From Bacteroidales bacterium KA00344 (GTDB lineage: Bacteria > Bacteroidota > Bacteroidia > Bacteroidales > Bacteroidaceae), in NCBI GenBank assembly GCA_001552765.1, contig KQ959462.1, forward strand, positions 17,697 to 81,696: a stretch of DNA of 64,000 bases, in the 5' to 3' direction. Numbering within the stretch: the stretch's first letter is position 1; each line of letters opens with the position of its first letter. Under the pieces are notes generated by a model, which saw only the letters and a program-made list of their open reading frames with translations, did not search any database and was not told the DNA's origin. This document shows, piece by piece, positions 1-9,682 of the stretch. The translations under genes and the position numbers were made by a program.

Positions 1-30
1 CCGTTTGAGATACCGCAAGGGTGGGAATGG
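1..30 (+). repeat. Outer inverted repeat of the hsdS pair, left arm
   Basis: These 30 bases are a perfect inverted match to 2533-2562 in the minus-strand hsdS. They encode the start of TRD1 (PFEIPQGWEW) in both genes. The match may continue to the left of the window. Recombination here would swap everything downstream of the TRD1 border between the two genes. Confidence 0.9.
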
Positions 31-1329
31 TGCAGAGTTTCATCACTATTTCAAATAAATCCAAAGGTAGTAGCAAATGATAATATTTCCGCTGCTTTTA
101 TTCCTATGGAAGCTATTTCTGCAGGATATGGTTCTGAATTTAGATATTACGAGAAGAAATGGGGTGAAATCAAATCTGGTTACACAACTTTTGCCGATAA
201 TGATATCGCATTTGCAAAAATCACTCCATGTTTTCAAAATAGAAAATCTGCAATCTTTGAGGGATTGCCCAATGGTATAGGAGCAGGAACAACAGAGTTG
301 AAAGTTCTACGAACATATGGCGATACCATAAACCGCTGGTTTGTTTTGTATTTTCTGGAGTCTCCATATTTTATTGACGAAGCGACATTCAAGGGTACAG
401 CAAACCAACAACGTATAATTGTTGGATATTTGGAAAACAAATTATTCCCCATTCCACCATTATCGGAGCAAGAGCGTATAGTTGGTAAGATAAGGTTAGC
501 AATGCCTATCATTGATAAATACTCAAAATCTCAGGAGCATTTAGACAAAATAAATGCAGAACTTAAAGTGTGTTTGAAAAAATCTATTCTACAGGAGGCA
601 ATCCAAGGAAAGCTCGTTCCGCAGATTGTAGGAGAAGGCACAGCCCAAGAATTGCTTGAACAGATAAAAGTGGAGAAACGAAAGCTCGTGAAAGAGGGCA
701 AGTTAAAGAAGTCTGCCCTCAATGATTCCGTTATCTTCCGTGGTGACGATAACAAGTATTACGAGCAGGTAGGTAAAAGCTGTATTGATATAACAGATGA
801 AATCCCGTTCGATTTGCCATGCAATTGGTGCTGGTGCAGATTTTCCAATATCGTATCTATGACTATTGGAAAAACGCCAGCAAGAAGTGAACAGGCATAT
901 TGGATAAATGGTAAATACAATTGGGTTTCAATATCAGATATGGTTGACGGAGGCATAATTTCTACTACAAAAGAAAAGGTTTCAGATTTGGCCGTCAAAG
1001 AAATTTTCTCTGCTCCAATCAGTGAAAAAGGGTCTCTTCTTATGAGCTTCAAACTAAGCATCGGTAAGACTTCAATTTTGGATATTGATGCTTATCACAA
1101 CGAAGCAATTATAACAATACGTCCTATTATTGATAAAGAATATGCCATGAGGAATTACCTATTCAAAGTATTACCTCAAATTGCAAATTTTGGTGAATCG
1201 AAAGATGCAATTAAGGGTAAGACCTTGAATAGTAAAAGTTTGGGGAAATTACTAATACCTTTACCACCTTTGCAAGAGCAACAACGTATAATAGTACAAA
1301 CGAATATGTTATCGAAGCAACTGCGATGA
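1..1329 (+). CDS. hsdS: Type I restriction specificity subunit HsdS, alternate convergent copy (5' end outside window)
   Basis: This reading frame is open from the first base of the window, so the gene begins outside it; 442 residues are visible. HsdS gives a type I restriction-modification complex its DNA target through two target-recognition domains (TRDs) separated by helical spacers. The visible part starts inside TRD1 at the motif PFEIPQGWEW, reaches the central conserved spacer (QGKLVPQIVGEGTAQELLEQ, about 600-690), then a second TRD starting at EIPFDLPCNW and ending in the usual PPLQEQQRI motif. It converges on the minus-strand hsdS and the two 3' ends overlap by 21 bp. Long inverted repeats are shared with that gene, so this copy is probably a silent or alternate cassette of an inverting locus rather than a decayed gene. 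Whether it has its own start and promoter cannot be seen here. Confidence 0.88.
   Translation, partial: PFEIPQGWEWCRVSSLFQINPKVVANDNISAAFIPMEAISAGYGSEFRYYEKKWGEIKSGYTTFADNDIAFAKITPCFQNRKSAIFEGLPNGIGAGTTELKVLRTYGDTINRWFVLYFLESPYFIDEATFKGTANQQRIIVGYLENKLFPIPPLSEQERIVGKIRLAMPIIDKYSKSQEHLDKINAELKVCLKKSILQEAIQGKLVPQIVGEGTAQELLEQIKVEKRKLVKEGKLKKSALNDSVIFRGDDNKYYEQVGKSCIDITDEIPFDLPCNWCWCRFSNIVSMTIGKTPARSEQAYWINGKYNWVSISDMVDGGIISTTKEKVSDLAVKEIFSAPISEKGSLLMSFKLSIGKTSILDIDAYHNEAIITIRPIIDKEYAMRNYLFKVLPQIANFGESKDAIKGKTLNSKSLGKLLIPLPPLQEQQRIIVQTNMLSKQLR
591..677 (+). repeat. Inner inverted repeat of the hsdS pair, left arm
   Basis: These 87 bases are a perfect inverted match to 1889-1975 when read base by base. 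The similarity continues with about 11 mismatches through roughly 775 (partner down to about 1791). The repeat encodes the central conserved spacer of HsdS, so inversion of 591-1975 would exchange the second TRDs and leave both frames open. Confidence 0.92.
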
Positions 1330-2811
1330 TTGTTCAATCTTCTGAACTATTCTTCTCTGCTCTTGCAGTGGTGGTATGCCAATAATAAGACCATAGAACA
1401 GTTCCTTGTTAAGGTGCGGAATAGCTGCACCTTTCTTGGAATTGCGTAAAGTTTCTTTGTAGAACTGTATAAAAGCTAAAACATAAGGTTTGTACATAGA
1501 GGAATTTATCCATAGTTGCTTGAATGTACTACCCATATAGCCGTCTTGTGGTACGGTGAAAACCTCACCAGAGTTTTCACCGTCCACAAGCACGATATTA
1601 TCACCTTTACACACAAATTTCCCTTGTTCAACAATCGTTTCTGGACTTTTACCACGTAAGTATTTTGCATTTAACAAGCATTGCTTGCCAGTGGTTTTTA
1701 AGCCGTCTGTAAGTTGGCAAACTGCATTTAATCGAGCAATAGACCAAGAACTTGGAAAGTCAAAAGGTAATTCAGTTTCAGAAACCTCGCTCCCTACCTG
1801 CTCATAATACTTGTTATCGTCACCACGGAAGATAACAGAGTCGTTGAGAGCAGACTTCTTTAGCCTGCCCTCTTTCACGAGTTTCAGCTTCTCCACTTTT
1901 ATCTGTTCAAGCAATTCTTGGGCTGTGCCTTCTCCTACAATCTGCGGAACGAGCTTTCCTTGGATTGCCTCCTGTAAAAGACTCTTTTTAAGACTTTCCT
2001 TTATTGTTGTATTTAGTTCATCCAAATGTTTTTGAACTTTACTATATCTTTCTATTTGTGATAATAGTTCAACTAATTTTGCCACAATTCTTTTTTGTTC
2101 TGACAGAGGAGGGAAAGGCAAAAGCAAACTTTTCAATCGATTTGCCGAAAGTCCAGGCATTGCTGTACCAACTGATGCCAAATTGTTGCTTTCTTTCAAT
2201 AGATAGATGAAATGGTATACATACTCACAGATACCATTAATACACGGACGTAATCTGTGAACATGGTTTTGAAGACACATATCATAATCTTCATTCCATA
2301 TAGCAGAACGTCCATAACCAGCACCACCTTCACAAACGAGCAAATCTCCTTTCGTAGCCGAGCAAGTCTTGATTTCTTCGTCAGTGAAATTCATAACCTT
2401 TACATTGTCAAGGACAAAGTATCCCCAATATAGATTAGAGGTCGTTATGAACTTTTGTGGAGTTCCACCACCTTTGTTGCTACTGCTCTGTTGTTTACCA
2501 CTTCCATGGTTAAAAATGTTGCCTATACGAGTCCATTCCCACCCTTGCGGTATCTCAAACGGCACTTCGTCGTCAATGCATTTCACCTCGCCTGTGGCGA
2601 GTATCTTCTCATAATGGGAATTGTCGTCACCACGGTAGATGACAGATGCGTTCTTGTCGCGCTTGATTTTCTTCTCCTTGATCAAGCGTTCTTTCTCTTG
2701 GCGAATCTTTTCAAGCAATACGCTTGCTGGCTCATCATTTGGATTTTGCGGTACAAGTTTTCCCTGTATTGCCCATTGTAATATGCTGTTCTTTAATTGT
2801 TTTCCGTTCAT
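1309..2811 (-). CDS. hsdS: Type I restriction specificity subunit HsdS (complete, expressed copy)
   Basis: A 500-residue DNA-specificity subunit. Order of parts: N-terminal helical spacer (MNGKQLKNSILQWAIQGKLV), TRD1 starting at VPFEIPQGWEW near residue 84, central spacer of about 85 residues with GKLVPQIVGEGTAQELLEQ, TRD2 starting at ELPFDFPSSW, and a C-terminal PPLQEQRRI motif. The duplicated spacer plus two TRDs and the length are normal for the family. The ATG at 2811 lies 66 bp behind the hsdM stop, and the gene is last in an hsdR-hsdM-hsdS operon, so this is the copy in expression position. The 3' end overlaps the convergent second hsdS by 21 bp. The inverted repeats it carries would let it change specificity by DNA inversion. 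No recombinase is visible in the window; one may lie to the left. Confidence 0.95.
   Translation of the reverse strand: MNGKQLKNSILQWAIQGKLVPQNPNDEPASVLLEKIRQEKERLIKEKKIKRDKNASVIYRGDDNSHYEKILATGEVKCIDDEVPFEIPQGWEWTRIGNIFNHGSGKQQSSSNKGGGTPQKFITTSNLYWGYFVLDNVKVMNFTDEEIKTCSATKGDLLVCEGGAGYGRSAIWNEDYDMCLQNHVHRLRPCINGICEYVYHFIYLLKESNNLASVGTAMPGLSANRLKSLLLPFPPLSEQKRIVAKLVELLSQIERYSKVQKHLDELNTTIKESLKKSLLQEAIQGKLVPQIVGEGTAQELLEQIKVEKLKLVKEGRLKKSALNDSVIFRGDDNKYYEQVGSEVSETELPFDFPSSWSIARLNAVCQLTDGLKTTGKQCLLNAKYLRGKSPETIVEQGKFVCKGDNIVLVDGENSGEVFTVPQDGYMGSTFKQLWINSSMYKPYVLAFIQFYKETLRNSKKGAAIPHLNKELFYGLIIGIPPLQEQRRIVQKIEQSSQLLR
1889..1975 (-). repeat. Inner inverted repeat of the hsdS pair, right arm
   Basis: Perfect 87-bp inverted partner of 591-677, in the central spacer of the minus-strand hsdS. 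Confidence 0.92.
2533..2562 (-). repeat. Outer inverted repeat of the hsdS pair, right arm
   Basis: Perfect 30-bp inverted partner of 1-30, located at the beginning of TRD1 in the complete minus-strand hsdS. Confidence 0.9.
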
Positions 2812-2877
2812 TGTTCTTGATACTACTTAAATTCGTCTACAACTTAGTGACGAATTAGTGAGACACCGTCTCACCTT

Positions 2878-4389
2878 TTACAATTCCTCCACATTCACAT
2901 CAATCCCCAAGATACGCTGTATCTCTGCCAAGGTCTTGTCTATCTCATGGTCGAGAGCCTTGCGTTTCTTGAAATAATTGGCAAGCAGCTCAGCTGGAGG
3001 CAAAATCTCCTCATCCTCTTTCGGAAACTTGCACAAGTCGAAGTTACAATCAGAATCTATCAACTCTTGCACAGGATAGCAGCGTGATTTCTCGTCACCA
3101 TCAGCAATGATAATTTCCTTGCGGTCGTTCCACCATTCACGGATAGGATTGCAATGCTCAGACTTCATGGATTTTGTCTTGGAGAAATGCTTGTAACCCT
3201 CTGGCATGTCGAGACGATAGAACCACGTTTCCTTTGTAGAGTAGCCCTCAGGAGCATCGTCTGCACTGGTATTGTCGAAAAACAAAATGTTTGTAGCAAT
3301 CGAAGTGTAAGGTGCAAAGATACTGCCAGGCAAACGGATAATGGTGTGCAAGTTGAAATCTCTGAGTAACTTTGTTTTGATGGCAATCTTTGTATTGTCT
3401 GCACCAAACAGGAAACCGTCTGGCACAATGACCGCTGCACGACCATACTTCTTCAGCCGATACATGATGAGAACCATGAACAAGTCGGCGGTCTCGCTAC
3501 TACGCATATCAGAAGGGAAATGTGACTTGACATCAGACTTCTCGCTGCCACCGTATGGAGGGTTCATCAATACAACATCGAACTTATCTTCATCCGTATA
3601 GTTTAGGACATCTTTTGTAAGTGAGTTGTCGTGATAAACCAATGGCGTGTCTATGCCATGCAGCAACAGATTTGTAACGCACAGCATATATGGAAATTGT
3701 TTCTTTTCAATGCCAAATACAGACTGATTGTACTCCCTACGGTCTTCCGCAGTCTTTACTTTTTTATCCAATTCGCCCAACCAACTCGTAATGAAACCTC
3801 CTGTACCACAGGCAAAGTCTGCCATCTTTTCGCCAATCTTCGGATTGACTATCTCTGCCATAAATTCGGTCAAGGCTCTTGGAGTGTAGAACTCACCAGA
3901 CGAGCCTGCCGACTGCATTTCTTTAAGGATAGTCTCGTATATCTCACCAAAAGCGTGGCTTTCTTCGTAATCACCAAGGTTTAAGCCGTCAATCACATTA
4001 AGCACTTGGCGAAGCTGAACACCGTCTTTCATGTATTGGTTGGCATCTTCAAAGGTTGTCTTTACAATCGCTTGGCGGATAGGAGTATTTGGTGTAACCT
4101 CAATATTTTTGAGTTTAACAAACAAGGTGTTATTGACAAACGAAAGCAGATCATCACCCGTCAGGGCATTACCACTTCCGTCATCATGTGCCCAGTTACG
4201 CCAACGGCACTCTTCGGGAATGATAGACTTGTAATCGTCATCGTCCAACTCCCAGTCATTCTCTTTCTCGTCATAGACTTTCATAAACAGCATCCATGCC
4301 ATCTGTTCTATGCGTTGCGCATCACCGTTGATACCGGCATCATTGCGCATGATATTACGTATTCGTTTTACGAAATTTGATAAACTCAT
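2878..4389 (-). CDS. hsdM: Type I restriction-modification DNA methyltransferase HsdM
   Basis: N6-adenine methyltransferase subunit. With two HsdM and one HsdS it forms the modification enzyme, and adding HsdR gives the restriction enzyme. Counted from the ATG at 4389 (504 residues), residues 1-130 form the helical N-terminal HsdM domain, SAM-binding motif I is FACGTGG at 192-198, and catalytic motif IV is NPPY at 276-279. The frame can be extended to a TTG at 4440, but MSLSNFVKRI is the usual family start and the added residues look unrelated, so the ATG was chosen. It lies 90 bp downstream of hsdR and 66 bp upstream of hsdS in one operon. The region looks more AT-rich than the housekeeping genes to the right, consistent with horizontal origin. 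Confidence 0.95.
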   Translation of the reverse strand: MSLSNFVKRIRNIMRNDAGINGDAQRIEQMAWMLFMKVYDEKENDWELDDDDYKSIIPEECRWRNWAHDDGSGNALTGDDLLSFVNNTLFVKLKNIEVTPNTPIRQAIVKTTFEDANQYMKDGVQLRQVLNVIDGLNLGDYEESHAFGEIYETILKEMQSAGSSGEFYTPRALTEFMAEIVNPKIGEKMADFACGTGGFITSWLGELDKKVKTAEDRREYNQSVFGIEKKQFPYMLCVTNLLLHGIDTPLVYHDNSLTKDVLNYTDEDKFDVVLMNPPYGGSEKSDVKSHFPSDMRSSETADLFMVLIMYRLKKYGRAAVIVPDGFLFGADNTKIAIKTKLLRDFNLHTIIRLPGSIFAPYTSIATNILFFDNTSADDAPEGYSTKETWFYRLDMPEGYKHFSKTKSMKSEHCNPIREWWNDRKEIIIADGDEKSRCYPVQELIDSDCNFDLCKFPKEDEEILPPAELLANYFKKRKALDHEIDKTLAEIQRILGIDVNVEEL

Positions 4390-4479
4390 ATATTTTGTCT
4401 CACTTTGTGTATCTTTCTCGCCACGACATAGCTCAAGCAAGCTTGGCTCTGTTCGTTTGACTTATCGAAAAGTTTCTAT

Positions 4480-6840
4480 TTATGCTATATTATAAATGTA
4501 TTGTTCCAGTTCCTTTACAGCATCAAGATATCCTTGCTTGCCACCAAAGAACTTCACAATGTTTGCCTTTGAACCCAATTTGCGGAATGGGTCATTTTCA
4601 AGCACGGTAAGGCTTTCCAATTCAGACACGCCTTCCTTGGTGTACTTATCCAACAAGGCTTCAAGCACAAGTCGTGCCTGTTCACCATACTTGCTGAATA
4701 TATCACGTTTCTTCACCTGTTCAGCACGCTCATGTCGTGTAAGTGTTTTCTTGCCGTAGGCTATATGACAGATGAAATCGAAATCATCCACATCATCCAT
4801 GTCTTGGTCGTGCTTCAATGCAGCAAGGTCAATACCACTTTCTTTGAGCATTTCGGCAATGTCTGACTTTTTCTTGGTCTCTTGCCATTTAGAAGTGAAG
4901 GTGTCAATTGTTGCGTATGTGTCAACAATACTTTTCTTTGTATAGTCAGTAATACTTTCCGTGCGCAGCAACTTGCCGTTTGTATCATAGACAGAAACAA
5001 CTTTGTTGATAACCATCACTTGACAACCATCCTTGGCAACAATCGGCTTCGGGCATGGCTCAGGATCGGGTTCTTTCACATCTTTAGGCTCGTCGTCTTC
5101 AGGAAGTACATACGGCTTAGGCTCTTTCTGCTTGGGCGGATAGTTCGGATCTATTTCAATCGGCCCGTCCCAATCTGGGTCTGCGAACAATCGTGTCACG
5201 TTGCGGAAGTCCATTACAGTGAAATATGTCTTTCCCTCCTTTTCACGAAGACGGGTGCCACGACCTATTATCTGCTTGAACTCTGTCATGGAGCCGATTT
5301 GTTGGTCAAGGACAATCAGTTTTGTCATTTTGCAGTCAACACCAGTCGAAAGCAACTTACTTGTTGTCGCTATGACCGGATATTTAGCCGAAACAGAAAT
5401 AAAGTAATCCAATTTACTTTTTCCGTATTCATCACTACCTGTTATACGAACCACATAATCTGGATTTTTCTTGCACATGTCAGCATTAGCATTCGTCAAA
5501 GCCATGCGCATATATTCCGCGTGAGTCTCGTCAGCACAGAACACAATGGTCTTTGCCATACGGTCTGTTTTTTTCAGGTAGTTGGTTATTTCTTGCGCAA
5601 CTTCCCTTATGCGGTCTTCTATGATTATGTTATAGTCGTAATCACTATTATTATAAATGCGGTCTTCTATCTCGTTGCCATGTATATCTTTTTGTCCCTT
5701 GGTCGGTCTCCACTCGTCACCGATGTTGGTTGTAATGTTGATTACCTTAAAAGGAGCAAGAAAGCCATCCTCTATGCCATTTTTGAGACTGTAAGTATAT
5801 ACAGGCTCACCAAAGTAACCAATACTCGACTGATACTTTGTTTCTTTTGGTGTGGCAGTCATACCAATATGAGTAGCCGAAGAAAAGTATTCCAATATAT
5901 TACGCCAGTTGCTGTCATCCTTTGCACTACCTCTATGACACTCATCAACGATAACGAGGTCAAAGTAATCGGGATTTGGAAACAGCTCTTGGTAATTCTT
6001 GGCGTCGTTCTGCCCAATCAGCTGTTGGTAGAGTGCAAAAAACACTTGGTACGAACCCAATTCCTCCAAGTGGTTCTTATCTTTTGAGTAGTCTATCTTG
6101 TGTGTTACCTTTTCCAATGGCTTAAAGTCCTGCTGTATAGATTGGTCAACCAATATATTGCGGTCGGCAAGATACAACACTTTCTTTTTCAATCCACTTT
6201 TTAGCAAACGCCATACAATCTGAAAGGCTGTATATGTCTTGCCTGTACCTGTTGCCATGACAAGGAGCACACGGTTCTGTCCTTTCGCAATGGCATTAAC
6301 TGTGCGGTTTACAGCATTGCGTTGATAATATCGTGGCGGAAAAATATTCTGGCCAGTGCAGAAAGGCTGCTCAATGACAGCTAACTCTTGCTCATTAAGT
6401 CCATTGCCATCGTTAGCCTCACTTTTGTATCTTTCGATAAGTTCTTCTTTTGTAGGAAATTCGTCCATGGCAAAAATGCGTTCCTTGCCAGTCAAAAAAT
6501 CATGTTCTGCAAAGCCTTCACCATTAGAACTATATGCAAACTTCACATCAAGCATTTGGGCATAAGTCTTAGCTTGTTGCAAACCATGAGAAACGGAGTG
6601 GTTGGCATCCTTTGCCTCTACAATGGCTAAGGGTGTTGCCTTGTTTGCATAAAGCACGTAGTCGGCAAACTTCGGTCTCTCTCTATGCACAAGATTGCCA
6701 TGAAGATTTATTTTACCATCCGTAAATTTAACCTTCTGTTCCATAAATATACTATCCTTTGACCACCCTTTGCTTGTAATGGCTTCATTGATATAGCGGA
6801 ACTTGACATCCTCTTCTGTTAAATTTTTGCTTATGCCCAT
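4480..6840 (-). CDS. hsdR: Type I restriction endonuclease subunit HsdR
   Basis: The translocating and cutting subunit of the type I system. From the ATG at 6840 (786 residues) the PD-(D/E)XK nuclease motif is seen as D60 and E75-A-K77, the helicase Walker A as GTGKT at 198-202, the DECH box at 299-302, followed by GMTATP and the motif VI sequence QIIGRGTRLR. A TTG two codons upstream is also in frame; the ATG is preferred. The length is shorter than EcoR124-type HsdR (above 1000 residues) but normal for the Bacteroidetes HsdR with a compact C-terminal region. All nuclease and ATPase motifs look intact, so the system should restrict DNA. It is first in the hsdR-hsdM-hsdS operon, 67 bp behind a small deleted regulator gene. 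Confidence 0.95.
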   Translation of the reverse strand: MGISKNLTEEDVKFRYINEAITSKGWSKDSIFMEQKVKFTDGKINLHGNLVHRERPKFADYVLYANKATPLAIVEAKDANHSVSHGLQQAKTYAQMLDVKFAYSSNGEGFAEHDFLTGKERIFAMDEFPTKEELIERYKSEANDGNGLNEQELAVIEQPFCTGQNIFPPRYYQRNAVNRTVNAIAKGQNRVLLVMATGTGKTYTAFQIVWRLLKSGLKKKVLYLADRNILVDQSIQQDFKPLEKVTHKIDYSKDKNHLEELGSYQVFFALYQQLIGQNDAKNYQELFPNPDYFDLVIVDECHRGSAKDDSNWRNILEYFSSATHIGMTATPKETKYQSSIGYFGEPVYTYSLKNGIEDGFLAPFKVINITTNIGDEWRPTKGQKDIHGNEIEDRIYNNSDYDYNIIIEDRIREVAQEITNYLKKTDRMAKTIVFCADETHAEYMRMALTNANADMCKKNPDYVVRITGSDEYGKSKLDYFISVSAKYPVIATTSKLLSTGVDCKMTKLIVLDQQIGSMTEFKQIIGRGTRLREKEGKTYFTVMDFRNVTRLFADPDWDGPIEIDPNYPPKQKEPKPYVLPEDDEPKDVKEPDPEPCPKPIVAKDGCQVMVINKVVSVYDTNGKLLRTESITDYTKKSIVDTYATIDTFTSKWQETKKKSDIAEMLKESGIDLAALKHDQDMDDVDDFDFICHIAYGKKTLTRHERAEQVKKRDIFSKYGEQARLVLEALLDKYTKEGVSELESLTVLENDPFRKLGSKANIVKFFGGKQGYLDAVKELEQYIYNIA

Positions 6841-6907
6841 ATTCAAATAATATTTTATTATCAGAAGTTCTACAACATACTTGCTAAGACAGGAAACTGC
6901 AAGCTCA

Positions 6908-7018
6908 TTACAATCTTTCGTTCTCGTCCGTAATCAAATCCTTGAGGTCAACTTCTATCAGCCAAGTTTGCGAAATACCCCTGCCATCTAAGACCTCTTT
7001 TATCTTGTTTAGTTTCAT
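6908..7018 (-). pseudogene. XRE-type helix-turn-helix regulator with internal deletion
   Basis: A 36-residue frame (MKLNKIKEVLDGRGISQTWL, then IEVDLKDLITDENERL) lies directly upstream of hsdR on the same strand. The first half matches the start of small XRE regulators that often precede Bacteroidetes restriction operons, which typically read KxVLxxRGISQTWLAxxxGKS. The second half matches their C-terminal end (VDLKDLI). The middle, which should hold the recognition helix and the NRRQPS-type segment (about 30 residues), is missing, and the two ends are fused in frame. From memory of the family, an intact member would be about 65-70 residues. I read this as a deleted controller; a functional minipeptide is possible but unlikely. 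Confidence 0.6.
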
Positions 7019-7286
7019 AAACTCACCGAATTTTGCTGCTAATATACATTAAAATTTGCGATAATCACTATAAATCAAGCTGTTTTATATAAATTATTCC
7101 AAATATTGCGAGTTATTTCGTGTAGTTATTGTACCTCTGCATCAGAGAAGAGTTGTTTGACAGCAAACGTATGCATATTGCAGAAGTTGGAACTGTTGCC
7201 AAATCATTACCTCTTTTGAGATAAAAGACTCATAAATAGCTTATTTAAGCTATTCTGCAGATTTTAGCGTAATTTTACGTAAAAAT
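7019..7286. other. AT-rich intergenic region upstream of the restriction operon
   Basis: No convincing gene is seen. It should hold the promoter of the minus-strand hsd operon, but I find no clean TAnnTTTG element on that strand. A perfect 9-bp stem-loop lies at 7235-7254 (AATAGCTTA / TAAGCTATT). A 32-codon open stretch ending at about 7222 resembles nothing I know. Confidence 0.4.
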
Positions 7287-7670
7287 AATTACCGTTTTTC
7301 TGTGATTATTTTCAGAGCATCTGGAGCAAAAAGGACTATGTTTTTACCTCCGTTGTCAGTTTGCGTCACATGAAAGCAGTCCGGTTTTTGTGTTTTGTGT
7401 TCTGCCGTATTATAACGAAGGCTTAATCACGATGCGATTAGGCCTTATCCGCCACCCGTCTAAGCCTCTTTCGCTCTGTGTTTAAGGCTCTTTCGGGATG
7501 CCGTTCGATATACAACCGCAGACGGATGAATTGGATGTATAAAAGCGTTTCGCCTAACACACTGATTATCAGAAAGCTACAAAACCTCCGCAAAAACAGC
7601 GTATTTCGGACGGAAGCGAAAGCGTTTTCAAATAAGCGAAATATAGAGGGGTGTTTGTCAATAAAAATAC
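7287..7670 (+). repeat. Dispersed intergenic repeat family, copy A (four 22-bp units)
   Basis: Left arm starts at ATTACCGTTTTTCTGT and contains AAAAAGGACTATGTTTTT. A central array of four units, each exactly 22 bp, runs 7416-7437, 7438-7459, 7460-7481 and 7482-7503; it is preceded by CTGCCGTATTAT and followed by TTCGATAT. The right arm ends in the best conserved block (7625-7670: TTTTCAAATAAGCGAAAT, then GGGGTGTTTGTCAATAAAAATAC in two parts). Related copies are near 23.9, 33.2, 47.2 and 57.2 kb. Units 1 and 2 can fold on each other (AAGGCTTAATC with GATTAGGCCTT). No coding potential and no transposase are seen. Confidence 0.85.
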
Positions 7671-7761
7671 AAGTATCAAGTACTTCCTGAGGTATAGGAC
7701 AACTATGTTTATTTTATAGCATATTTTTTAAGTTTGGCATCTTATTATTGAGTTTTTTACA

Positions 7762-7770
7762 TACCTTTGC
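7762..7770 (+). promoter_or_regulatory. Promoter -7 element of the outer-membrane barrel gene
   Basis: TACCTTTGC matches the Bacteroidetes -7 consensus TAnnTTTG, with TTATTG about 20 nt upstream. Transcription would begin near 7777, leaving a 40-nt leader before the ATG at 7817. This argues against the longer frame that opens at 7748, which would overlap the promoter. Confidence 0.6.
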
Positions 7771-7816
7771 ATCTGTTCAGCAGAACAATCAGCAATTTAA
7801 ATTTAATTTAAAAAAC

Positions 7817-8425
7817 ATGAAAAAAGTCATTCTAAGTGCGTTGGTTTTGCTAACCACGCTTAGCGCCAATGCTCAGCAGGAAGCAGGGCGCATCACTGTT
7901 CAGCCTAAAGTGGGGCTCAATGTTGCCTCAGTAACAAAAGATGACGATTCAGATTCGAGAATCGGTCTTGCTGCAGGAGCCGAGATAGAATATCAGGTCA
8001 CTGACATGGTGAGCCTTTCGGGCGGACTGCTCTATTCTATGCAGGGTGCCAAGGGAAAGTTAGGGGGTATCGATGGCACCATGAAACTTGACTACATCAA
8101 CATCCCCATTCTGGCCAATGTCTATGTGGCTAAGGGCTTTGCCGTCAAACTGGGCTTGCAACCCGGATTTATGATCAATGATAAGATTAAGGTGTCGCAA
8201 AACGGTGTGAGTGCTGAAGTCAGTCTGGACAAGGCATTCAAGCAGGCCGGCATTGAGGCAACCATTAACAAGTTTGACCTTGCTATCCCGGTCGGAGTGT
8301 CTTATGAGTTCAGCAACTTTGTTGTAGATGCCCGCTACAACTGGGGTATGACCAAGATTGTGAAAGAATCGAACAGCAAGAACAGCGTGTTCCAAATTTC
8401 CGTAGGCTATAAGTTTGCGCTATGA
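7817..8425 (+). CDS. Outer-membrane beta-barrel protein (porin family, OMP_b-brl_2-like)
   Basis: A 202-residue protein with a clear signal peptide (MKKVILSALVLLTTLSANAQ, cleavage after the AQ) and alternating hydrophobic beta strands ending in an aromatic/hydrophobic C-terminus (VGYKFAL), as expected for a small eight-stranded barrel inserted by the BAM complex. The repeated GxxxGxEIEYQ and ARYNWGMTKIV patterns are typical of the Bacteroidetes 'porin family / PorT-like' barrels. The start was set at ATG 7817 because the promoter at 7762-7770 lies inside the longer frame. It is monocistronic, with its own promoter and a strong terminator at 8461. The transported substrate, if any, cannot be told from sequence. 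Confidence 0.85.
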   Translation: MKKVILSALVLLTTLSANAQQEAGRITVQPKVGLNVASVTKDDDSDSRIGLAAGAEIEYQVTDMVSLSGGLLYSMQGAKGKLGGIDGTMKLDYINIPILANVYVAKGFAVKLGLQPGFMINDKIKVSQNGVSAEVSLDKAFKQAGIEATINKFDLAIPVGVSYEFSNFVVDARYNWGMTKIVKESNSKNSVFQISVGYKFAL

Positions 8426-8533: not shown

Positions 8534-9682
8534 CTACTGAAGCAGGGAGACCATGAGGCGCGCAGCCTTTTCAGGCGCTACAGCGTCGCCCAATCGGGTG
8601 CGAACATCGTCATAACCACGCAACATGACATCGCGGGCAGGCTGTCCGGGCAAGATTTTGCCAAGTTCTCCGGCAATGCTAGCCACGCCGAAACGGTCGG
8701 CAAAAAGTTCCGATACGATTTCGCGATCGGCAATGAGATTAACCAAACTGATGTAGTCGCATTGAAGTATATGGTCAAATCCCCATCGGAAAAGACGTGG
8801 GAGAGGCGTTTTATAGCACACCACTTGTGGCACATCGAACAATGCCGTTTCAAGCGTCGCCGTGCCGCTCGTAACCAAAGCTGCTGTAGAATGAGCCAAT
8901 AAAGCGTAGGTCTCGTTGTCTACTTTCACCACATCGGTATCGTATAGGAATTGTTGATAATATTCATTTTCTATCGAAGGTGCTCCTGCCAACACCATCT
9001 GATAGTTAGACTGCTCATGGCAACAGGTGCGGGCAGCAGCTATCATCGCCGGAAGATTATCCTTGATTTCCTGCTTTCGACTCCCTGCAAGCAGGGCAAT
9101 GATGCGTTTTTGCGGATTGATTCCATGTCGGGTGCAGAACATTTCCTTCGTCTCCCGGTATTCAGAAAAGAAATGGGTAACCTCCTCTGCCGTAGGGTTG
9201 CCCACGTAGTGGATTTTGTAATGATGTTTCTCCTCATAGAAAGGCACCTCAAAAGGCAGTATGGAAAACATCTCGCTAATGTAGCGTTTGATGGATTTGA
9301 TGCGCCACTCCTTCCATGCCCATATCTTGGGAGAGATATAATAATAAACTGGGATGCGGGCGTTCTTGTGCAAGAACTTGGCTATTTTAAGATTGAAGCC
9401 CGGATAGTCTACAAGGATTACCACATCGGCGTGCCATTCCACAATATCGCGTTTGCACATCGCCATATTCCGGAAAATAGTGGGTAGATGCATCAACACG
9501 GGCAAAAAGCCCATATAAGCCAATTCCTTGTAGTGCTTGACGCGCGTTCCTCCGACGGCCGACATCAGGTCGCCGCCGAAGAAGCGGAATTCTGCCAAAG
9601 GGTCTTCTTTCTTTAAGCACTGCATCAACCGACTGGCGTGCAGGTCGCCCGATGCTTCGCCTACGATCAGGTAATACTTCAT
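8534..9682 (-). CDS. lpxB: Lipid-A-disaccharide synthase LpxB
   Basis: A 382-residue glycosyltransferase of family GT19. It joins UDP-2,3-diacylglucosamine and lipid X to form lipid A disaccharide at the inner face of the cytoplasmic membrane. The N-terminal signature MKYYLIVGEASGDLHASRLM is diagnostic, with SPKIWAWKEWR and the C-terminal donor-site stretch ALLAGSRKQEI and TSGTATLE all present. Length is normal for the family. The gene starts 49 bp behind surE and is probably cotranscribed with it. The 3' end converges on the porin gene across a shared terminator. Confidence 0.97.
   Translation of the reverse strand: MKYYLIVGEASGDLHASRLMQCLKKEDPLAEFRFFGGDLMSAVGGTRVKHYKELAYMGFLPVLMHLPTIFRNMAMCKRDIVEWHADVVILVDYPGFNLKIAKFLHKNARIPVYYYISPKIWAWKEWRIKSIKRYISEMFSILPFEVPFYEEKHHYKIHYVGNPTAEEVTHFFSEYRETKEMFCTRHGINPQKRIIALLAGSRKQEIKDNLPAMIAAARTCCHEQSNYQMVLAGAPSIENEYYQQFLYDTDVVKVDNETYALLAHSTAALVTSGTATLETALFDVPQVVCYKTPLPRLFRWGFDHILQCDYISLVNLIADREIVSELFADRFGVASIAGELGKILPGQPARDVMLRGYDDVRTRLGDAVAPEKAARLMVSLLQ

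What the first reader, a model, noticed from the sequence alone, without database searches (positions are those of the whole stretch)
1..2562. Invertible type I specificity locus with two nested inverted repeats
Two convergent hsdS genes share a perfect 30-bp inverted repeat at the TRD1 border (1-30 and 2533-2562) and a perfect 87-bp inverted repeat in the central spacer (591-677 and 1889-1975). Inversion at one or both would produce up to four HsdS proteins and so change the methylome and host restriction by phase variation. Such systems are known in other Bacteroidetes; this one is inferred from the repeats.
Basis: partly seen in the sequence, partly recalled or inferred. Interest (0 to 1): 0.62.

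Follow-up and report, generated by a model that had tools for sequence, protein, structure and literature searches.

The report
Invertible DNA-specificity switch with neighbouring recombinase
This bacterium's type I restriction-modification locus carries a spare, promoterless half-gene, matching inverted repeats and (just outside the window) its own recombinase, so flipping two DNA segments should let it change which DNA sequence it methylates and cuts among four options; the kind of switch is known, this copy is new.

Summary
The "30-bp" outer repeat is cut by a 100-N scaffold gap immediately left of the window. On the far side, 30 more bases match the other end of window 2533-2620, so the real outer repeat is about 88 bp (a relative with the same TRD1 has exactly 88). 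The inner repeat is 88 bp exact (590-677/1889-1976).

The left hsdS lacks its 5' end, hence silent; hsdM and hsdR are intact. In silico, inversion at either or both repeats gives four complete HsdS proteins (500, 525, 524, 501 aa).

Close relatives of the recombinase sit beside convergent hsdS genes in dozens of loci. Comparing them exposes a short site inside the repeats, TAR-NNNNYA-TTATGAG. The 6-mer matches within outer pairs and within inner pairs but differs between them, suggesting a two-address code that keeps TRD1 and TRD2 shuffling separate.

This is a new member of a known kind (inverting type I R-M, like pneumococcal SpnIII/cod; reported in Prevotella intermedia and Bacteroides fragilis). 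Inversion itself was not observed.

The parts
1..30 (+). Visible right end of the outer-left inverted-repeat arm; its other 30 bp lie left of a 100-N gap (C122:17567-17596), with about 28 bp missing
1..1329 (+). Silent partial hsdS' (no start, no N-terminal region; continues left through the gap to C122:17567)
22..486 (+). TRD1a (silent here; 97% identical TRD is in the active gene of Hoylesella timonensis L009)
590..677 (+). Inner-left inverted-repeat arm (88 bp exact)
753..765 (+). Candidate inner crossover site CAAGTA-TTACGAG (one arm base differs from its partner)
784..1326 (+). TRD2a (silent here)
1309..2811 (-). Expressed hsdS, 500 aa (TRD1b + TRD2b in the assembled orientation)
1312..1776 (-). 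TRD2b (active here)
1801..1813 (-). Candidate inner crossover site CAAGTA-TTATGAG
1889..1976 (-). Inner-right inverted-repeat arm (88 bp exact)
2077..2541 (-). TRD1b (active here; 94% identical TRD silent in Prevotella corporis L012, 93% identical TRD active in Parabacteroides chinchillae L018)
2533..2620 (-). Outer-right inverted-repeat arm, complete 88-bp copy
2608..2620 (-). Candidate outer crossover site TTCCCA-TTATGAG; identical partner at C122:17567-17579, outside the window
2878..4440 (-). hsdM, N6-adenine methyltransferase (HsdM_N + N6_Mtase)
4480..6846 (-). hsdR, EcoAI-type restriction subunit (NF046051, 1086 bits, cut-off 550)

Best explanation
A complete EcoAI-like type I restriction-modification operon (hsdR-hsdM-hsdS, minus strand) is followed by a convergent silent hsdS' cassette and, divergently from that cassette, a dedicated tyrosine recombinase. 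The recombinase inverts DNA between like sites. The outer pair swaps TRD1 and everything inside it; the inner pair swaps TRD2. The single expressed hsdS therefore carries one of four TRD1 x TRD2 combinations, and each should give a different bipartite methylation and restriction target. Shown: genes, repeats, recombinase, in-frame chimeras, conserved site and conserved arrangement in relatives. Inferred: that inversion happens in cells, that the recombinase does it, that the 6-mer NNNNYA is the strand-exchange (overlap) segment that makes outer sites pair only with outer and inner only with inner, and that the methylome changes.
For: Repeats exact and far beyond chance. Recombinase: PF00589 at 3e-26, closest solved structure an XerC-like/XerA recombinase (4a8e, 3e-22); R, H-x-x-R, H and Y of the catalytic set are aligned. 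Four predicted HsdS open and full length. 67 loci with recombinase relatives; where enough flank is held, most have convergent hsdS with an outer repeat 60-70 bp from the recombinase start (Bacteroidales) and an inner repeat between the TRDs. TRD1a is silent here but active in L009; TRD1b is active here, silent in L012, active in L018. Site under DNA-level constraint: in 84 non-identical GDDNxxYE-type instances, Gly is always GGT and Glu is GAG 83/84 against a 34% background, while Asp and Asn codons vary. 40 hsdS loci from the order: no recombinase relative (one 25% match) and no core; four HsdS without a nearby recombinase checked in detail lack this linker. Same-address pairing: 135 of 151 sites have a partner with the same 6-mer in their locus; 5000 shuffles gave mean 103, maximum 119.
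Against: No reads, no second strain and no methylome were available, so only one orientation has been seen. The outer-left arm is interrupted by an assembly gap. The two inner sites differ by one base in the arm (TTACGAG/TTATGAG). Sites share ancestry, so the codon and address statistics overstate independence. Requirement for the recombinase was not tested; for pneumococcal spnIII one group found recombination independent of all known recombinases (PMC6620402, title).
Confidence: 0.88

Rival explanations
1. The repeats recombine by general homologous recombination (RecA) or gene conversion, and the neighbouring recombinase plays no part.
For: Arms of 88 bp embedded in longer similar stretches could support some homologous exchange. 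Independence from known recombinases has been reported for pneumococcal spnIII (PMC6620402).
Against: The recombinase is kept beside such hsdS genes from Bacteroidales to Treponema. Extra single-TRD cassettes in L014-L019, L024, L026, L027, L033 and L035 show the inner-type site without the RGDDN-coding DNA that precedes it elsewhere, so shared homology there looks like roughly 15 bp (by inspection). Synonymous positions of the core are constrained.
Confidence: 0.07
2. A frozen relic: the duplicated hsdS' and recombinase remain but the locus no longer inverts in this strain.
For: No orientation variants seen; one arm base differs between the inner sites.
Against: All genes intact, no frameshift in the silent cassette, inner arms identical over 88 bp while the wider similarity is 84%, which implies recent exchange.
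Confidence: 0.08
3. Assembly artefact: the outer repeat or the convergent arrangement is an artefact of misjoined contigs at the gap.
For: The gap lies inside the outer repeat.
Against: The same order recombinase - silent hsdS' - hsdS - hsdM - hsdR is found in independent genomes L009, L012, L013 and others. The gap pattern (30 bp on each side of an 88-bp repeat) is what a short-k-mer assembler leaves at a true two-copy repeat (inference).
Confidence: 0.02

Closest known systems
Inverting type I R-M systems with duplicated hsdS (REBASE survey, Atack et al. 2020, PMC7394358; Streptococcus suis four-way switch)
   Same: Repeats before the 5' TRD and between TRDs, two hsdS copies, four possible alleles, often a locus recombinase
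   Different: Other organism and TRDs; here the silent copy also lacks its 5' end and the recombinase lies beyond it
Pneumococcal cod/SpnIII locus with PsrA (PMC4948785, PMC7096588)
   Same: Tyrosine recombinase encoded in the locus; PsrA needs a 15-bp IR1 and IR1-like sequences inside longer repeats, as the short site would do here
   Different: Pneumococcus has three hsdS genes and three repeat pairs (six alleles); sequence relation of PsrA and IR1 to this recombinase and site was not compared
Phase-variable type I R-M in Prevotella intermedia and Porphyromonas gingivalis (PMC5690328)
   Same: Same order of bacteria, same class of system
   Different: Reported only as present in draft genomes; no site analysis in that announcement

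Membership tests
Type I restriction-modification (EcoAI-like) | HsdR, HsdM and HsdS with two target recognition domains | tested here: met
Inverting (phase-variable) type I R-M | Second, silent hsdS with different TRDs in opposite orientation | tested here: met
Inverting (phase-variable) type I R-M | Inverted repeats before TRD1 and between TRD1 and TRD2 | tested here: met
Inverting (phase-variable) type I R-M | Each inversion gives a complete in-frame HsdS | tested here: met
   (outer inversion modelled with the 28 gap bases taken from the right copy)
Inverting (phase-variable) type I R-M | Recombinase encoded at the locus | tested here: met
Inverting (phase-variable) type I R-M | Both orientations present in one population | not testable with these tools
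   no reads or second strain held
Phasevarion | Orientation changes methylome and gene expression | not testable with these tools
   needs experiment
PsrA-type recombinase | Direct sequence and site relation to pneumococcal PsrA/IR1 | not tested
   pneumococcal sequence not fetched; similar by context only

The most novel reading that the evidence does not exclude
One recombinase runs two independent, non-cross-reacting inversions in the same gene by a two-address code: a common arm (TTATGAG) plus a 6-bp exchange segment that is one sequence at TRD1 borders (TTCCYA, or TTTRCA in Clostridia) and another at TRD2 borders (CAAGTA, CAGGTA, CTCTTA). The site is carried inside HsdS as a conserved RGDDNxxYE-type linker that type I HsdS lacking the recombinase do not have. 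Relatives of the recombinase appear to use the same core to shuffle type IIG methylases.
Probability: 0.55. Interest if true: 0.55.

Novelty: new member of a known kind. Interest (0 to 1): 0.42.

Why it matters
The comparison across relatives gives a concrete, testable recombination site and an explanation of how 5' and 3' recognition domains are shuffled separately by one enzyme. If right, the site can be used to recognise such switches in draft genomes, where, as here, assembly gaps can fall inside the repeats.

Tried and rejected
A search of the paper library for the core sequence as text found only unrelated papers among those listed. A literature search for Bacteroidales plus invertible specificity subunits found nothing specific. 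Crossover anywhere in the long repeat was considered less likely, because extra cassettes seem to share only the short site. The first codon script used a motif off by one residue and found nothing; it was corrected. Within the Prevotellaceae HsdS-like set alone, recombinase presence versus exact core was not significant (Fisher p = 0.14; 9 of 14 against 1 of 6), in part because recombinases of about 64% identity use a variant core with AAC or AAT after GAG. Species identity was not established.

Full report
WHAT IS THERE. The window is G000:C122:17697-81696. On its minus strand run hsdR (4480-6846), hsdM (2878-4440) and hsdS (1309-2811). HsdR matches the EcoAI/FtnUII model at 1086 bits (cut-off 550), HsdM has HsdM_N plus N6_Mtase, and HsdS has two Methylase_S stretches. 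A second hsdS-like frame converges on it from the left (1-1329, +); the two overlap by 21 bp at their 3' ends.

THE REPEATS. Exact inverted repeats are 1-30/2533-2562 and 590-677/1889-1976 (88 bp), with further exact pieces of 16 and 32 bp beside the inner one, inside a 263-nt region 84% alike. 200 resampled sequences gave at most 22 bp. One base left of the window ends a run of exactly 100 N. The 30 bases before that run and the 30 after it are the two ends of the reverse complement of window 2533-2620. H. timonensis locus L009, with the same TRD1 (97% protein identity), has 88 bp from that point to the TRD. The outer arm is therefore most likely 88 bp with 28 bp lost in the gap.

THE RECOMBINASE. 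At C122:16698-17501 on the minus strand lies a 268-aa tyrosine recombinase; its start codon is 65 bp from the outer repeat. It matches Phage_integrase (3e-26) and XerA/C/D models below their cut-offs, and aligns nearly end to end with an XerC-like archaeal recombinase of known structure, catalytic residues included.

WHAT INVERSION WOULD DO. The silent copy starts at the outer repeat: to its left is recombinase upstream DNA, not an hsdS start. Simulated inversion at outer, inner or both repeats gave full-length HsdS of 525, 524 and 501 aa beside the assembled 500 aa (the 28 gap bases were taken from the right copy). TRD1a, silent here, is in the active gene in L009; TRD1b, active here, is 94% identical in the silent position of L012 and 93% in the active position of L018.

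RELATIVES. A scan of bacterial genomes with the recombinase returned 67 loci at 58-97% identity, in Bacteroidales, Clostridia, Treponema and Acholeplasma. Where enough flank is held, most have convergent hsdS copies with an outer and an inner inverted repeat. In a sample of 150 genomes of the window's own genus, 11 counting the window's own have a full-length recombinase of at least 60% identity, and one more has a 192-residue stretch at 77%.

THE SITE. Aligning DNA upstream of recombinases and around the repeats shows a short shared element, TAR-NNNNYA-TTATGAG. Outer identity starts at NNNNYA. Inner sites stay alike up to that 6-mer, while the bases after it vary (TTAT, TTGG, TTTC), so the 6-mer is where both kinds of exchange could occur. 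In 34 loci, 135 of 151 sites have a partner with the same 6-mer in the locus (shuffles: mean 103, maximum 119, 0 of 5000 reaching 135); paired 6-mers occur on both strands, and the outer and inner 6-mers differ within each locus. Minor variants occur together: both outer arms read TTCCCA here, in L035 and in L200, against TTCCTA elsewhere. The site is inside the coding sequence, yet its codons are fixed: GGT 84/84 and GAG 83/84 while GAG is 34% elsewhere in the same genes. Shared ancestry inflates these figures.

CONTROLS. 40 loci chosen by HsdS family match across the order had no close recombinase (one 25% match) and no core. Four HsdS without a nearby recombinase that were read residue by residue lack the RGDDNxxYE-type linker. 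In the HsdS-like set from the family, the recombinase-core association alone was not significant (p = 0.14), in part because a 64%-identical recombinase group uses a variant core.

CONTEXT. In relatives L210 and L223, cdsA and lpxB are convergent neighbours; in this genome recombinase, R-M genes and an outer-membrane beta-barrel gene lie between them. HsdM is 95-96% identical to copies in other genera but at most 60% in a sample of its own genus, which suggests horizontal transfer.

LITERATURE. Four-allele inverting type I systems are established (PMC7394358); pneumococcal PsrA inverts hsdS at a 15-bp repeat and at IR1-like sequences in longer repeats (PMC7096588); hsdS plus recombinase homologs are reported in Bacteroides fragilis and Treponema (PMC4948785) and phase-variable type I R-M in Prevotella intermedia and Porphyromonas gingivalis (PMC5690328). 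I therefore file this as a new member of a known kind. I found no published description of the address pattern in the held library, but most subscription papers are missing from it.

LIMITS. No orientation variants, mutants or methylomes were available; species was not identified; the role of the 6-mer is an inference.

Noticed in passing
L048:4921-9972, L043:3216-8267: A 68-69% identical recombinase beside a type IIG (Eco57I-type) enzyme and a convergent partial copy, with a perfect 30-bp inverted repeat across methylase motif IV (AIIGNPPY) that holds the core CATTATAGG: a likely invertible type IIG system.
   Followed up: partly
L065:1183-8815: A 61% identical recombinase between two genes coding Big_2-repeat proteins, with many inverted repeats: possible shuffling of surface proteins.
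   Followed up: partly
L035:6376-9102; also L014-L019, L024, L026, L027, L033: Extra single-TRD2 cassettes, each starting with the inner-type site; L035 has three, so more than four HsdS combinations are possible there.
   Followed up: partly
window 1-8425 with C122:14909-17696: The R-M island plus an outer-membrane beta-barrel gene (7748-8425) lies between cdsA and lpxB, which are adjacent and convergent in relatives L210 and L223.
   Followed up: partly
L193, L195, L196, L197: Recombinases of 63-66% identity beside HsdS with a variant site ACGCCCCATTATGAGAA, encoding HYEN instead of YYEK.
   Followed up: no
L019:6905-7515 and 8536-9146: A perfect 611-bp inverted repeat between active and silent hsdS copies, so both carry the same TRD2 segment: sign of recent exchange or conversion.
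   Followed up: no
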